Positions 1,369 to 60,478 of a DNA stretch of 64,000 nucleotides are shown here, piece after piece. Position 1 is the first letter of the stretch; each line of letters opens with the position of its first letter. Source of the DNA: Paludibacter sp. (GTDB lineage Bacteria > Bacteroidota > Bacteroidia > Bacteroidales > Paludibacteraceae); the NCBI GenBank assembly GCA_028710895.1, contig JAQTTH010000001.1, positions 405,876 to 469,875 on the forward strand. Reading direction: 5' to 3'. The notes beneath the pieces were generated by a model that saw only the letters and a program-made list of their open reading frames with translations, was not told the origin of the DNA and ran no database searches. Both the position numbers and the translations under genes were made by a program.

Positions 1369-1401
1369 AAAAAGAAAGAGAGTAGCCTCCTACTCTCTTT
1401 C
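1369..1401 (-). terminator. Rho-independent terminator of the 1428-2363 gene
   Basis: A perfect 12-bp stem (1374-1385 with 1390-1401) closes a 4-base loop and is followed on the minus strand by a run of five T. It sits 27 bases after the stop codon of the preceding minus-strand gene. Confidence 0.85.
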
Positions 1402-1427
1402 CGATTCGCTTAAAGCAGACCGCATGT

Positions 1428-2363
1428 TTATTTCTGTGCTGCAGGCATTAGGGGTAATTCTTTTGCCATGCTCACATTCAGCGTAACAAGGTTATCGCCA
1501 GGCACATTCAGGGGCACTTGTTGGGTTACGTAGCCAATTTTCGAAAGCTTCACGATATAAACGCCCGGGTCGAGCGATTTCACATTCATGCCGCCTGCCA
1601 CGCCTGTTGTTTTTTCGAGCACAAGCGTTTGGTCGAGCGTAAATTCCATTTTCACACCCGGAAGACCTGTTCCCGTTTCGGCATCGGTAATGAAGGCATT
1701 CAGCATCAGAGAGCCCGAGAATAAAATCACCTTACGGTTGTTTTGGTATTCGTTGTATAGCGCCTGATTGCTAAACTTAAAAGTATCCATCATTAAATCA
1801 ACCTTATCGATTGTTGCCATTTCGGCTTCGAAGAGTACTGCCAGTTGGTCGGTGCTTTGTTTCCGTCCGATTGTTCCGCCCTTTGGTGTGCCAATAGCGG
1901 CTTTAAACGCATCCGCTGCTGTTTTGTAATCGGCAATTTTCGCGGGGGTAATGCCATAAGCCGTGAGTTTGTCCTTGTTAGCATCTGCCGATTTGTAAAT
2001 CACGCCCAGGGTAGTGTCCAGCTCATTGTCCGACATATTTTTCAGACCCGATTCGGTGTAATAGATTTCATTGGCCAACACTACGTTTCCAGTCATCTGT
2101 GCATACACCTGAATAGCATGGCTTAATTCCACGGCCTTTTGCAGGGCTGTTTTTCGTAAGTTCTCCTTTTGTTTGCGCAAACCGGTAATGTCGGTTGCCT
2201 GTTGTTCCTTGTACGAGTCAATTTCAGTCAAATTCGTTTCGATCTCCGTTGTCAGGTCGGCCATAACCGGAAGGTCTGTAAAGAATTCGGCAGATTTTTT
2301 CAGAAATAAGAGTACGCGTCTGAGCATAGAGTAAATGCTGCTTTGTTTTGAAGTCATAATCAT
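1428..2363 (-). CDS. Unknown helical protein with C-terminal carboxypeptidase-regulatory-like domain
   Basis: A protein of 311 residues with no recognised name. About residues 1-210 are strongly helical with heptad-like patterning and no clear signal peptide. Residues about 215-300 look like a carboxypeptidase regulatory-like (transthyretin-type) beta-sandwich: AFITDAETGTGLPGVKMEF, a glycine-rich turn, then GVYIVKLSKIGYVTQQVPL. The helical part resembles the 229-residue protein at 50008-50697, clearest in FKFSNQALYNEYQNNRKVI against FKKINPTFYGEYEKTRIII. Both genes have a 21-bp-period tandem array just upstream. The start could be the first ATG or the third codon. A terminator follows the stop. 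Function is unknown; a structural or DNA-associated role would be a guess. Confidence 0.75.
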   Translation of the reverse strand: MIMTSKQSSIYSMLRRVLLFLKKSAEFFTDLPVMADLTTEIETNLTEIDSYKEQQATDITGLRKQKENLRKTALQKAVELSHAIQVYAQMTGNVVLANEIYYTESGLKNMSDNELDTTLGVIYKSADANKDKLTAYGITPAKIADYKTAADAFKAAIGTPKGGTIGRKQSTDQLAVLFEAEMATIDKVDLMMDTFKFSNQALYNEYQNNRKVILFSGSLMLNAFITDAETGTGLPGVKMEFTLDQTLVLEKTTGVAGGMNVKSLDPGVYIVKLSKIGYVTQQVPLNVPGDNLVTLNVSMAKELPLMPAAQK

Positions 2364-2430
2364 TAAATTTTAAATTGTTTATATTAGGTATTAAATCTAT
2401 TTATTTGGTTTCGGTGGCTGTTGCAGTCAA

Positions 2431-2711
2431 TTACGAGCCTTTCAATTTCTTGTCAGAAGCGTTCAAGCAAATGTCAGACTCGTTCAAGCTGATGTCAGAG
2501 GCGTTCAAGCAAATGTCAGAAGCGTTCAAGCTAATGTCAGACTCGTTCAAACTGATGTCAGAAGCGTTCAAGCAAATGTCAGACTCGTTCAAGCTGATGT
2601 CAGAAGCGTTCAAGCTGATGTCAGAGGCGTTCAAGCGAATGTCAGAAGCGTTCAAGCTGATGTCAGAGGCGTTCAAGCGAATGTCAGAAGCGTTCAATTT
2701 CCCGACAGATT
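2431..2711. repeat. 21-bp tandem repeat array (about 13 units)
   Basis: Twelve full units begin with GTCAGA at 2452, 2473, 2494, 2515, 2536, 2557, 2578, 2599, 2620, 2641, 2662 and 2683, each exactly 21 bases apart. The typical unit is GTCAGA(A/G/C)(G/T)CGTTCAAGC(A/T)(A/G)AT with few variants. Degenerate edge units with TTTCAATTT or GTTCAATTT lie at both ends. Because 21 is divisible by three, long frames stay open on both strands (plus heptad SEAFKQM, minus heptad LNASDIS). Neither is clearly a gene. The array ends about 70 bases before the start of the 1428-2363 gene. Confidence 0.95.
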
Positions 2712-3027
2712 TATTTTTTTGAACGTACGTACCCTGTTTTTTCAGAAAAAACTCATTTTCGCGGTTGAATATTCCTTTTTCGCAACAATCAGTTTCGTTC
2801 CAGCGGAAACCGGCTTCGCCCGCCGCTCCCGAAAACGACCGCAATATAAAACATGTGTCGCATTGTTTTTTAAATTAAATGATGTACGACAAGCTTTTAT
2901 GACGTACGACAAAGCCAAAGTGGAGTACGACAACAAGGGATGGAGTTTGACAAAGGCGAATGTATGAGAATGTGCAGGAGATGAGGAATTTAGGGGAGAG
3001 ATTTATATTATCTTTTACATTCAGAAA

Positions 3028-25177: not shown

Positions 25178-26728
25178 CTATTTTACCATTAATACAAGAG
25201 TTCCTTGCTCTTGCTCAGTATTTACTTTTAAGAGATACATTCCTGATTTCAAATCATTTCTATCAATAACAACAGAGCTGGTTCCTGAATCATATCTTCC
25301 AAGATTTTCTTTTCTGATTTGTTTTCCGGTGAGGTCAGTAATTTCGATACTAACATTTGATGATACACCTAGTGTAAAACGCAATACAGTCCTATCAGAA
25401 AATGGATTTGGATAATTCACAAGATCCGTTTTATTCATCGTATGACTTTGAATTGAGTTAATTACAGAAGAGCCCCAATTTGGATCACCTACCGGTTTTC
25501 CATTGGTACCAATAAATGCTGCACCATCTGCATTGTATTTGCAATTCAATGTATTTAGCATATAATCAATCGTCATTCTGGTATAATCATGAAGTGGAGT
25601 TACTCCTTTTTTCTTTGTCAGATAATACCAACTTACTAAATCAGTCATTGCAGCAGGTGCAGCTGTTACTGAAATTGATTTTTTAACCCAGGCAGTGGTT
25701 GGGTTGCTTATTTTTCCTTTGATAAAATCGGTCATAATAGGACCTTCGTTTACATTATTGGCTGTGTAAAAAGTAGCTAACTCAGATGATACAGAATACA
25801 CATTATTACTGAGGATATATTTCGTTGTATCATTTGGAACAGAACCTATCCAAACTATTTTATTCTGACCAAGCGCATCTTTTTCAGTGTGCATATTAAA
25901 TTCGGTTAATCGTGTAGCATCGCTTTGATCAGCACCAAATGACATTCCATTGATAACGAGGTTATTTGTAATTTTAATTGTATCACCCACATTACCTAAT
26001 TCCATAAATCCAAAATAACCACCGTGGTTAATAATTGTATTATTGCTAAACTCCATATTTTTAATTACACCGGCGCCATTGCGGTGACGCACCAAACGGT
26101 CGTAGCAGTTAACCATGGTATTGTTGGTAATGATAAGTTTCTCAACCTGACTATCGCGTGTTTCAATCATACGACCAGCACCCTGATCACTAAAGGTAAT
26201 ATTACCCATATTGTAGAATTTACAGTTGTTTACGCGGAATACATTGGCTGCATTCCAGGTTCCAACACCGCCCTGGCCTGTATTAGCAAAAACACAATTT
26301 GTAAAAGACAAATTCGTATTTTTTCCTAAATTCACAAAGCACCAGTTAGCAGGACTATATCCATCATTGGCCGATTGTGCATCAAAGAAAATTCCATCCA
26401 CTGAAACATCCTGTTGGCAAGCAATCATATACCAGTTCTGAGTTCCTGCATCTGAAAGTTCAGCTCTTACTATAGGCATTGCTCCGGTTCCTGTTTCGGC
26501 CACTAAGTTTAATTTAAATTTAAGATTTTCGAAAGCGCCACGTACATAATAAGTACCACCACGTTTCAGAACATAGATTTTATCCTCATGCGTTCCATTA
26601 GGAAGTGTGTCACCAAGAATTGCTTCGTTTAAATAAGCAGGAGCGGGAATAGTAACTCTGGTTTGCGCATACATATTGATTACTGACAGTAAAGCCACAC
26701 CCAGAAAGAAAGTAAATTTAGTTTTCAT
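25178..26728 (-). CDS. Parallel beta-helix surface protein with type IX sorting domain
   Basis: A 516-residue exported protein. Signal peptide to about residue 21, then a right-handed parallel beta-helix (about 30-340, with repeated N-rich rungs such as ITNNTMVNCYDRL and SNNTIINHGGYFGF). The last 80 residues are a T9SS type A sorting domain (LVNYPNPFSDRTVLRFTL ... SGMYLLKVNT). It is therefore secreted through the type IX system and anchored on the surface. Beta-helix proteins of this kind are polysaccharide lyases or glycan-binding proteins; no catalytic triad can be assigned. It directly follows the TonB receptor gene, where a SusD would be expected, so it may be the surface partner of the transporter. 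Confidence 0.85.
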   Translation of the reverse strand: MKTKFTFFLGVALLSVINMYAQTRVTIPAPAYLNEAILGDTLPNGTHEDKIYVLKRGGTYYVRGAFENLKFKLNLVAETGTGAMPIVRAELSDAGTQNWYMIACQQDVSVDGIFFDAQSANDGYSPANWCFVNLGKNTNLSFTNCVFANTGQGGVGTWNAANVFRVNNCKFYNMGNITFSDQGAGRMIETRDSQVEKLIITNNTMVNCYDRLVRHRNGAGVIKNMEFSNNTIINHGGYFGFMELGNVGDTIKITNNLVINGMSFGADQSDATRLTEFNMHTEKDALGQNKIVWIGSVPNDTTKYILSNNVYSVSSELATFYTANNVNEGPIMTDFIKGKISNPTTAWVKKSISVTAAPAAMTDLVSWYYLTKKKGVTPLHDYTRMTIDYMLNTLNCKYNADGAAFIGTNGKPVGDPNWGSSVINSIQSHTMNKTDLVNYPNPFSDRTVLRFTLGVSSNVSIEITDLTGKQIRKENLGRYDSGTSSVVIDRNDLKSGMYLLKVNTEQEQGTLVLMVK

Positions 26729-26756
26729 GATACATTATTTAAAGTTATAAACTCCT

Positions 26757-26772
26757 GTGGGCTATTGCCCAC
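26757..26772. other. Small GC-rich hairpin between receptor and beta-helix genes
   Basis: GTGGGC and GCCCAC pair around TATT, with no T run on either side. It could stabilise or separate the messages; it is not a clear terminator. Confidence 0.4.
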
Positions 26773-26816
26773 AACGCTTCAGGCCTATTGTTCTGTTTAT
26801 AGTCGCCCGAACGACT

Positions 26817-49964: not shown

Positions 49965-50000
49965 AAAATCCCGAAACTCAATTCAGAGTTTCGGGATTTT
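49965..50000 (-). terminator. Terminator of the 50008-50697 gene
   Basis: AAAATCCCGAAACTC (49965-49979) pairs perfectly with GAGTTTCGGGATTTT (49986-50000). The core stem is the same as in the terminator at 53816-53854. Confidence 0.85.
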
Positions 50001-50007
50001 AAAGTTC

Positions 50008-50697
50008 TTATTTCACTTCAGCCGGTTTATCACCCGCTTTGGGGCGAGTAGCTGCATGAGATATTATTATGCGTGTTTTTTCGTATTCGCCGTAGAATGT
50101 AGGATTAATTTTCTTGAATGGCAACATCAACGGATCCAGCGTGTCTTTAATAAGCGCATACGATTCATGAAGCCGTGCCTTGATTTCGGCTGTTGCCCGC
50201 GACGACCGTGCTTCGATATTGCGGATAGTAGGGTTTTGGCTCAGGTAGCTATCGGTACTATCGCCCAAATCGTCGATTTCGCCCTGTGTTACTTCCCATT
50301 TGAGCAATTCAGGTGCAATGCTCATGGCTGCTTCATACACTTCATGACCTTTTACAACTAAATTACTTTCGCGCATGTTGTTTAAGGCCGGTTCTGTGAA
50401 AGTACCAATTATTTTCAACCGTACATCGTTTTTCTCAGCACCAACCGCCGCAACACCAGCTCCTACAACCAACAGGTTTGCAGTCATTTCTTCTCTCCGA
50501 TAGCCTTTAATAGCATAATCAGCTTTGGTGCTCACCGCTTGTTTTTGTTTAAGGTCAGTCACAGCGGCAATATTCGTTTTCAGCTTTGTTTGCACTGCTA
50601 CAATAGCCGGTTTGTCGCTGATGAGTGTCTGATTGTTGTCCAATCCTTCTACAACACTCTCGATCATACTCTCTAAATCCAATTCTTTTCTTTTCAT
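50008..50697 (-). CDS. Unknown helical protein, second member of the 21-bp-array-associated family
   Basis: A 229-residue, largely helical protein without signal peptide. It begins with MKRKELDLESMIESVVEGLD. A hydrophobic, glycine/alanine-rich stretch ANLLVVGAGVAAVGAEK (about 74-90) may be a buried helix. The region before the C-terminus (LMLPFKKINPTFYGEYEKTR, about 188-207) resembles the corresponding part of the protein at 1428-2363, but here the regulatory-like beta domain is missing and a short charged tail follows. Like that gene it has a 21-bp-period array about 80 bases upstream and a terminator right after the stop. Function unknown. Confidence 0.7.
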   Translation of the reverse strand: MKRKELDLESMIESVVEGLDNNQTLISDKPAIVAVQTKLKTNIAAVTDLKQKQAVSTKADYAIKGYRREEMTANLLVVGAGVAAVGAEKNDVRLKIIGTFTEPALNNMRESNLVVKGHEVYEAAMSIAPELLKWEVTQGEIDDLGDSTDSYLSQNPTIRNIEARSSRATAEIKARLHESYALIKDTLDPLMLPFKKINPTFYGEYEKTRIIISHAATRPKAGDKPAEVK

Positions 50698-50775: not shown

Positions 50776-50988
50776 CGATGAAACATGCTATCCAACGGGC
50801 GACACCGCCAATCGAAACCCCGACACATGCAATCCAAGGTCTGACACATGCAATCCAAAGCCCGACACATACAATCGAAAGCCTGACACATGCTATCGAA
50901 CAGACGAAACTGACAACCCTGACATGTGCACATGCAATCGAGTTAACAAAACTGACAATCCTGACAGCTGCACATGCAATCGGAAGCT
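50776..50988. repeat. Second 21-bp-period tandem array, with 42-bp higher-order units
   Basis: Units of about 21 bp with the form (C/T)GACACATGCAATC(C/G)AA begin at 50800, 50821, 50842, 50863 and 50884, then two 42-bp units at 50905 and 50947 (AAACTGACAA(C/T)CCTGACA ... GCACATGCAATCG). An edge unit lies at about 50776. Sequence is unrelated to the array at 2431-2711, but the period is the same. It begins about 80 bases before the start codon of the 50008-50697 gene. Both strands stay open in one frame across it. Confidence 0.9.
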
Positions 50989-58940: not shown

Positions 58941-60413
58941 TTAAATATGCTTAAACCATTTTTCGTACGCCACTTTCGTTGCTTCTACATTTTCAGTTTC
59001 GGGAGTGATTACCTGAATCTTTTTCAAGGTTGCAAAAGCTTCTTCGGCGTCTTTATAAATCCCCGCTCCTATTCCGGCACCACGCGCTGCACCTACCGAC
59101 CCATCGGTATTGTACAACTCAATAGTTGCTCCGGTGATATTAGCCAAAGTCTGGCGGAAAATAGGGCTTAAGAATAAATTAGCATGTCCGGCACGAATGG
59201 TTTTGGTTTCAATGCCCATTTGGTTCATGATATCCATACCGTATTTGAACGAGAAAGCAATGCCTTCGTGAGCCGCACGAATCAAATGTGCTTTAGTAAT
59301 GCGGTTGAAGTTTACGCCGTGGATAGAACAGTTTGGTTCCTGATTTCCGAGAACACGTTCCGCACCATTGCCAAAAGGAATAATGCTTACACCTTCGCTA
59401 CCAACAGGAATTCCTGCAGCCAGTTCGTTCATTTCGGCATAGCTGATACCTTCAGGAGCTACGTTATTTTTAATCCATGTGTTCAGAATGGCCGTTCCGT
59501 TAATACAAAGCAATACACCTACACGAGTTGCATCGGCTGTGTGATTTACGTGAGCAAATGAGTTTACGCGCGATTGTGGATCGTATTTCGAATCGCTGTT
59601 TACACCATAAACAACCCCTGAAGTACCACCTGTAGCAGCAATTTCGCCCGGGTTCAACACGTTTAACGACAACGCATTGTTAGGCTGATCACCAGCGCGA
59701 TATGTTACAGGAGTACCTGAAACCAAACCAAGTTCAGCAGCAATTTCTGGTTTCAGGTTTCCTTGTTGACCAAATGTTGGAACAATTTCAGGAACTAATT
59801 TGGTATCGAAACCAAAGTAATCGAACAAGAATTTAGCCGGAGCTTCCGCTTTAAAATCCCATGCAATTCCTTCAGATAATCCCGAAGCCGTTGTACGTGC
59901 ATCACCCGTCATACGCATCGCCAGATAATCTCCCGGAAGCATGTAATATTTAGCTTTCGCAAAGTTTTCAGGCTCATTCTCTTTTACCCATGCCATTTTC
60001 GACAAAGTAAAATTACCCGGAGAATTCAACAGGTTCGACAAACACATTTCGCTGCCAATTTCGCTCATGGCTTTTTCACCATAAGGTACTGCACGCGAGT
60101 CGCACCAAATAATGGAATTACGGATAGCCTGTTGATTTTCGTCTACCAACACCAAACCGTGCATTTGGTACGAAATACCAATGGCTTTAATATCGGATGC
60201 GTTTACACCCGACTCTTCCAATACGACTTGCGTAGCCAGTTTCAGGTTTTTCCACCAAATTTCGGGATTTTGTTCTGCCCAACCGGCTTTTACCGAAATA
60301 ATTTCCATTTCTACTTTTGGAAAAAATGCCGATGAGACACATTCGCCTGTGGTGGCATTCACCAAACTCGCCTTTACCGACGAACTACCTAAATCATAAC
60401 CGAGTAAGTACAT
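58941..60413 (-). CDS. xylB: Xylulokinase
   Basis: A 490-residue FGGY-family kinase that phosphorylates D-xylulose to xylulose 5-phosphate. The N-terminal phosphate loop is YDLGSSSVKASLV; AIGISYQMHGLVLVDEN and IIWCDSRA (about 65-100) are typical of xylulokinases; RAGDQPNNALSLNVLNPGEI and GGTSGVVYG follow; the C-terminal nucleotide site is near IRAGHANLFLSP. First of the four xylose genes after the regulator, 28 bases before the GH3 gene. Confidence 0.96.
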   Translation of the reverse strand: MYLLGYDLGSSSVKASLVNATTGECVSSAFFPKVEMEIISVKAGWAEQNPEIWWKNLKLATQVVLEESGVNASDIKAIGISYQMHGLVLVDENQQAIRNSIIWCDSRAVPYGEKAMSEIGSEMCLSNLLNSPGNFTLSKMAWVKENEPENFAKAKYYMLPGDYLAMRMTGDARTTASGLSEGIAWDFKAEAPAKFLFDYFGFDTKLVPEIVPTFGQQGNLKPEIAAELGLVSGTPVTYRAGDQPNNALSLNVLNPGEIAATGGTSGVVYGVNSDSKYDPQSRVNSFAHVNHTADATRVGVLLCINGTAILNTWIKNNVAPEGISYAEMNELAAGIPVGSEGVSIIPFGNGAERVLGNQEPNCSIHGVNFNRITKAHLIRAAHEGIAFSFKYGMDIMNQMGIETKTIRAGHANLFLSPIFRQTLANITGATIELYNTDGSVGAARGAGIGAGIYKDAEEAFATLKKIQVITPETENVEATKVAYEKWFKHI

Positions 60414-60421
60414 ATATTTTT

Positions 60422-60478
60422 ATTTACAATTTGTTCATTTACAATTTACAATTTGTTCATTTACAATTTACAATTGAA
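60422..60478. repeat. AT-rich direct repeats upstream of xylB
   Basis: TTTACAATTTACAATTTGTTCA (60438-60459) is preceded by a shortened copy (60423-60437) and followed by another (60460-60478). They lie directly before the xylB start and could be operator half-sites for the adjacent Nudix-type regulator, or simple repeats common in this genome. Confidence 0.6.

What the first reader, a model, noticed from the sequence alone, without database searches (positions are those of the whole stretch)
1428..2711. Unknown helical protein next to a 21-bp tandem array: first copy of a possible two-part system
The gene at 1428-2363 and the array at 2431-2711 are close together and read in a common direction. 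The same pairing (helical protein, about 70-80 base gap, 21-bp-period array, hairpin terminator after the stop) recurs at 50.0-51.0 kb. A repeated gene-plus-array arrangement is not explained by any family I know.
Basis: partly seen in the sequence, partly recalled or inferred. Interest (0 to 1): 0.72.

Follow-up and report, generated by a model that had tools for sequence, protein, structure and literature searches.

The report
Helical proteins with phased DNA arrays
Across the Bacteroidota, genes for little-known all-helical proteins sit next to a DNA repeat array whose spacing (two turns of the double helix) is kept while its letters change, which looks like an undescribed protein-and-DNA partnership.

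Summary
The genes at 1428-2363 and 50008-50697 (both minus strand) are paralogues in a helical family for whose helical domain I found no usable Pfam or NCBIfam model. I collected 151 family genes; 142 have at least 400 bp upstream, and 105 of these carry a tandem array there (downstream control 5 of 75, gene bodies 2 of 150). Outside the window's own family of genomes it is 83 of 117, 82 of them at 21 bp or a multiple. Unit sequence differs between loci, even between paralogues of one genome; the period stays. Units show a 10.5-bp rhythm of conservation, no codon rhythm and no excess of open frames. Bacteroidota-type promoters, where recognisable, cluster between array and gene. DUF6261 genes, with no detectable homology to this family, show the same layout at 41-42 bp (17 of 19), usually with palindromic units. 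Four arrays elsewhere in the genome share units with one gene's array. Best reading: each protein assembles on its own helix-phased array upstream of its own promoter. Binding is inferred, not shown; the proteins are near-neutral and no DNA-binding fold was recognised. The paper searches made here found no description of it.

The parts
1428..2363 (-). Helical-family gene 1 (P0001, 311 aa); likely start codon 2357 by homologues
   Evidence: AlphaFold2 mean pLDDT 95.8
1719..2357 (-). All-helical domain of P0001 (residues 3-215), the part shared by the family
   Evidence: no usable Pfam/NCBIfam model
1455..1709 (-). C-terminal transthyretin/CnaB-like beta domain of P0001 (residues 219-303)
2441..2700 (-). 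Array 1, period 21 bp, about 12 units, 5' of gene 1: two well-conserved blocks per unit (around TTGAACG and CTGACAT), each followed by a variable stretch
1373..1402 (-). Terminator-like hairpin after gene 1
50008..50697 (-). Helical-family gene 2 (P0002, 229 aa), helical domain plus short tail only
   Evidence: AlphaFold2 mean pLDDT 95.9
50779..50982 (-). Array 2, period 21 bp (also 42/63), about 9-10 units, different sequence, 5' of gene 2
   Evidence: 64/84 at lag 21
49965..50000 (-). Hairpin after gene 2
   Evidence: read from the sequence

Best explanation
Gene plus array is one module. The helical protein made by the gene assembles side by side on its own array, one protein (or dimer) per two helical turns, always on the same face of the DNA. 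The array lies just upstream of the gene's promoter, so the assembly most likely controls the gene's own expression; matching arrays elsewhere in the genome would be further docking sites, used for regulation or to tie distant DNA together. SHOWN: association, constant period, 10.5-bp conservation rhythm, no coding signal, promoter-proximal position, locus-specific units, matching arrays in trans. INFERRED: that the adjacent gene's product is the binder, that it assembles cooperatively, and what follows from it.
For: Association: 105 of 142 genes, 83 of 117 outside the home family, 82 at 21 bp or a multiple, against 5 of 75 downstream and 2 of 150 gene bodies and 11 of 529 ordinary ORFs of this genome against 8 of 10 helical-family genes. 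Helix phasing: conservation within units peaks at period 10.5 bp (z 10.9, 0 of 1000 permutations), the 3-bp rhythm is not raised. Locus-specific binder: paralogues in one genome have unrelated units, so one shared regulator is unlikely and the adjacent product is the simplest choice. Trans sites: C32:2943-3358 matches P0001's array (88% over 250 bp; consensus 21 of 21 columns), C14:99610 that of L005 (0.94, next best 0.54), C14:209044 that of L003 (0.81, next 0.54), C14:277948 that of DUF6261 gene L213 (0.77, next other array 0.42). Parallel: DUF6261 genes, 17 of 19 with 41/42-bp arrays, palindromic in 13 of 17, as expected of sites for a symmetric dimer. Promoter between array and gene. No RNA structure: array 1 folds worse than all 200 shuffles, array 2 like shuffles.
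Against: No binding was measured. The proteins are near-neutral (mean pI 6.5-7.1, net charge about -2 to 0) and Foldseek/VIA showed no convincing fold match, DNA-binding or other. 37 of 142 genes show no array within 600 bp. Unit sequence is alike only between close orthologues, so protein and site would have to co-evolve fast. One array can lie between two divergent genes whose proteins are only 21% identical (L174). Arrays also exist without such a gene: 8 orphans in 841.6 kb, at least two at convergent gene ends where promoter control makes no sense; 5 of the 8 match none of the gene arrays compared. The L003 pair is weak when only array cores are compared (0.60, 10 of 21 columns).
Confidence: 0.5

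Rival explanations
1. The array is the cis-acting part of a mobile or selfish element, and the helical protein helps it spread or persist; orphan arrays are copies without the gene.
For: Orphan arrays share units with a gene's array while similarity is confined to about the array in three of four pairs; many copies per genome; gene remnants exist (L003 broken; G001 fragments).
Against: No transposase, nuclease or polymerase domain was recognised in the protein. No family remnant beside seven of the eight orphans, one marginal 48-aa match at E 0.005 beside the eighth. In the P0001/C32 pair similarity runs 86 bp past the array, which ordinary duplication explains too.
Confidence: 0.17
2. A different DNA-binding protein reads the arrays; the helical proteins are merely what it regulates.
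For: Near-neutral proteins without a recognised DNA-binding domain; arrays upstream of the promoter, as in operator clusters.
Against: Units differ between paralogues within a genome, so as many regulators as arrays would be needed. Three helical families would share the arrangement by chance.
Confidence: 0.15
3. By-product: the DNA beside these genes tends to form satellites by slippage or unequal crossing-over, without function.
For: Fast sequence turnover; higher-order 42- and 63-bp repeats; orphan arrays.
Against: Slippage does not choose 21 bp in 82 of 83 cases, nor one side of one gene family, nor a 10.5-bp conservation rhythm, nor palindromes for DUF6261.
Confidence: 0.1
4. The array encodes a seven-residue repeat peptide or a leader/small RNA.
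For: 21 bp is seven codons; array 1 is open in some frames on both strands.
Against: Open frames in array cores 1.57 against 1.41 expected, 22 of 80 with none (20.9 expected), 3-bp rhythm not raised; periods of 22, 41 and 45 occur; no Rfam match at the arrays and no RNA structure; promoter downstream of the array.
Confidence: 0.04

Closest known systems
DUF6261 (PF19775)
   Same: About 245-aa protein of Bacteroidota without known function, short polar tail, helix-phased array directly upstream.
   Different: No detectable sequence homology to the P0001 family (hhalign probability 1.4); period 41-42 bp and mostly palindromic units instead of 21-bp direct units.
Plasmid iterons with their initiator (recalled)
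   Same: Direct repeats of about two helical turns beside the gene of the presumed binder; autoregulation is common there.
   Different: Chromosomal, many paralogous copies each with its own unit, no recognised initiator fold, no match in the plasmid collection.
ParR/parC and other centromere-adaptor systems (recalled)
   Same: Tandem, helix-phased sites upstream of the gene of the protein that coats them.
   Different: No partition ATPase or actin homologue noticed beside the window copies (neighbours HsdM, LytTR, PhzF); not searched systematically elsewhere.
CRISPR arrays
   Same: Short direct repeats beside a gene.
   Different: Units abut without unique spacers; no Cas-like domain in the protein.

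Membership tests
DUF6261 (PF19775) | Pfam match / homology of P0001 and P0002 | tested here: not met
   No PF19775 match at E up to 1; family profile against DUF6261 profile: probability 1.4, E 0.036
Transthyretin-like / CarboxypepD_reg domain (C-terminus of P0001) | Pfam gathering score | tested here: inconclusive
   PF13620 27.1 bits against cut-off 32.3 for P0001; relative P0085 reaches 47.5
Transthyretin-like / CarboxypepD_reg domain (C-terminus of P0001) | Beta-sandwich fold | tested here: met
EF-G-binding_N (PF07299) | Pfam match across the family | tested here: not met
   1 of 76 members at E up to 1e-3, L047/P0066 at 28.5 bits against cut-off 27.1
Iteron / initiator system | Direct repeats of about two helical turns next to the binder's gene | tested here: met
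   (the binder being the adjacent product is inferred)
Iteron / initiator system | Winged-helix initiator protein | tested here: inconclusive
   No convincing match for the helical domain in Foldseek or VIA lists
Iteron / initiator system | Replication origin function | not testable with these tools
   Chromosomal, many copies
Partition (centromere-adaptor) system | Partition NTPase next to it | tested here: inconclusive
   Four window neighbours scanned: N6_Mtase/HsdM, LytTR, PhzF, one without a match; other loci not scanned
CRISPR array | Repeats separated by unique spacers | tested here: not met
   Units abut head to tail
CRISPR array | cas genes | not tested
   -
Known anti-phage defence (PADLOC) or phage protein (PHROGs) | Profile match | tested here: not met
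   Five proteins: nothing below E 0.03 in PADLOC or 0.008 in PHROGs

The most novel reading that the evidence does not exclude
A previously undescribed class of bacterial nucleoprotein system: several helical protein families with no detectable homology each build on a self-encoded, satellite-like array whose helical period (21 or 41-42 bp) is what selection keeps, while unit sequence and protein co-evolve fast, centromere-fashion; arrays in trans give each paralogue its own private set of sites in the chromosome.
Probability: 0.33. Interest if true: 0.93.

Novelty: categorically new. Interest (0 to 1): 0.85.

Why it matters
A gene family with no known function gains a specific, testable partner. 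If the protein binds its array, Bacteroidota carry many private DNA-binding modules per genome (in this genome at least seven family genes and 12 DUF6261 genes), which would open questions of chromosome organisation or regulation in a phylum important in soil, sediment and gut. Conservation of helical spacing without conservation of sequence is unusual among bacterial sites and resembles how centromere satellites behave. It also gives DUF6261 a first functional clue.

Tried and rejected

Papers: search listings only; none appeared to describe this. One passage of PMC10376253 was read: a table entry naming a DUF6261 protein, nothing on function. The library is open-licence papers only.

Limits of the counts: score and threshold were set after looking at the first 25 loci; the 117 genes from other families are the cleaner test. 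Of 151 genes, 9 were dropped for less than 400 bp upstream; hits without an N-terminus and proteins sharing the same first 200 residues were dropped before the 151. Not every hit was fetched (weak, partial or contig-edge ones were left). DUF6261: 17 of 19 at a threshold of 46, 15 of 19 at 48. Third family: 7 of 11 evaluable loci reach 48, 4 of them 59 or more; two have an array downstream instead (L052, L265); two loci were not evaluable (L255 short, L258 wrong frame). The Bacteroidota promoter consensus is recalled, not from a call. I saw no strict promoter match by eye upstream of the two window genes.

Full report
The two window copies. P0001 (1428-2363) and P0002 (50008-50697) lie on the minus strand, each with a 21-bp array upstream and a hairpin after the stop. 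They are homologous at 23% identity. P0001 is an all-helical domain plus a transthyretin-like beta domain; P0002 is the helical domain with a short tail. The neighbours are ordinary: HsdM/N6 methylase, a LytTR regulator, a PhzF-like protein, one without a match.

Family and spread. Searches with P0001 and P0002 found paralogues in the same genome. A profile of the helical domain (A2) matched 50 of 395 genomes of the class and 18 of 395 of the phylum at E up to 1e-5; the counts share some genomes, the own one included. In the window's own family of genomes 73 of 150 matched the full-length profile, but by my reading of the match ranges most of these hits are the beta domain alone and about 9 genomes have the helical domain. 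Named sources include Paludibacter propionicigenes WB4 (Palpr_0570), Paludibacter and Bacteroidales MAGs and one Pyrinomonadaceae MAG.

Association. In 600 bp upstream of each gene I scored self-matching at lags 8-70 (84-base window, threshold 48; composition-shuffled maximum 49, 99th percentile 45). 105 of 142 genes have an array; downstream flanks 5 of 75, gene bodies 2 of 150. After removing proteins over 70% identical it is 93 of 126; outside the home family 83 of 117, lag 21, 42, 63 or 43 in 82. In the home family other periods also occur: 22, 41, 44, 45, 61. Within 900 bp, 108 of 151 have a 20-22-bp array, median length 314 bp, median distance to the start codon 125 bp. In 841.6 kb of this genome 11 of 529 ordinary ORFs have such an array upstream against 8 of 10 helical-family genes, Fisher p 2e-11; one of the misses is probably L047, whose array lies at about -655.

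What the array is. Unit sequences are alike only between close orthologues and only on the same strand: mean similarity 0.55 above 60% protein identity against 0.22 for the reverse complement, and near background below 45%. The period is kept. Column conservation within units peaks at two cycles per 21 bp (power 2.2 against 1.05, z 10.9, 0 of 1000 permutations; three cycles 0.91), while the 3-bp harmonic is not raised. Open frames are as expected by chance. Promoter matches peak at -100 to -50, between array and gene. These facts fit sites read by protein on one face of the DNA, upstream of the promoter.

Parallel families. Two of the arrays met in the census lie upstream of DUF6261 genes. All 12 DUF6261 genes of this genome have an upstream array with best lag 41 or 42 at 46/84 or more, and 5 of 7 in three other genomes. 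Units are palindromic in 13 of 17 arrays (at most 4 of 200 permutations reaching), while the 21-bp arrays of the P0001 family are not. A third family (L197/L254 type, 9 of 120 genomes) has a 21-bp-type array in 7 of 11 evaluable loci, three of them weak. DUF6261 occurs in 4 of 247 class genomes searched, the own one included, and in none of 14 control genomes.

Arrays in trans. The census listed 28 periodic stretches: ten beside helical-family genes (nine genes), eight intergenic arrays of this type without such a gene, four inside coding frames, six of other kinds (sorting is mine). Three of the eight orphans match the array of a gene elsewhere in the genome, and a whole-genome search with P0001's array found one more at C32:2943-3358. 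P0002's array has no second copy. In three of the four pairs similarity is confined to about the array; in the P0001 pair it runs 86 bp further on the side away from the gene. Conserved and variable columns correspond between P0001's array and its C32 copy (r 0.81; 0.56 for L005, 0.45 for L003). The orphans lie in promoter regions, between genes of one direction and at convergent ends, so plain promoter control does not cover them all.

Mechanism. Since the units differ from paralogue to paralogue in one genome, the simplest binder is the adjacent product. I therefore propose self-targeted, cooperative assembly on a helix-phased array with autoregulation and, through trans arrays, further sites. 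Against it stand the near-neutral charge, the lack of a recognised DNA-binding fold, the 37 genes without an array in 600 bp, and the orphans without a known partner.

Novelty. Pfam, NCBIfam, PADLOC and PHROGs gave no usable match for the helical domain. Eight paper searches in the open-licence library showed no description. The layout resembles iteron and centromere-adaptor systems in kind, but the combination of private units per paralogue, conserved helical period, three helical families and trans arrays fits none that I know.

Noticed in passing
window 26749-26816 (minus): Pistol ribozyme (RF02679, 56.4 bits, gathering 34.5) directly upstream of the minus-strand gene 25178-26728, which has a Por secretion tail.
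   Followed up: no
window 60422-60475: Short 22-bp repeat, 2.5 identical copies, just 5' of the minus-strand ORF 58941-60413; perhaps a young or unrelated repeat.
   Followed up: no
window 2880-2965: Imperfect GTACGACAA-like motifs about 20-21 bp apart beyond array 1, seen by eye, not flagged by the scans; may be a decayed array.
   Followed up: no
L174: Two divergent family genes (21% identical proteins) share a single 21-bp array between them.
   Followed up: partly
G000:C14:209044-209386 (L200): Orphan 21-bp array between genes that look like kbl and tdh (named by eye from translations).
   Followed up: partly
G000:C14 about 228.3-229.0 kb (L201): ORF resembling a REP-associated transposase (by eye) next to a DUF6261 gene and its array.
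   Followed up: no
L052, L265: Third-family genes with the periodic array downstream instead of upstream.
   Followed up: no
P0085: Homologue in a Pyrinomonadaceae MAG: the family may reach beyond Bacteroidota, or the MAG is contaminated.
   Followed up: no
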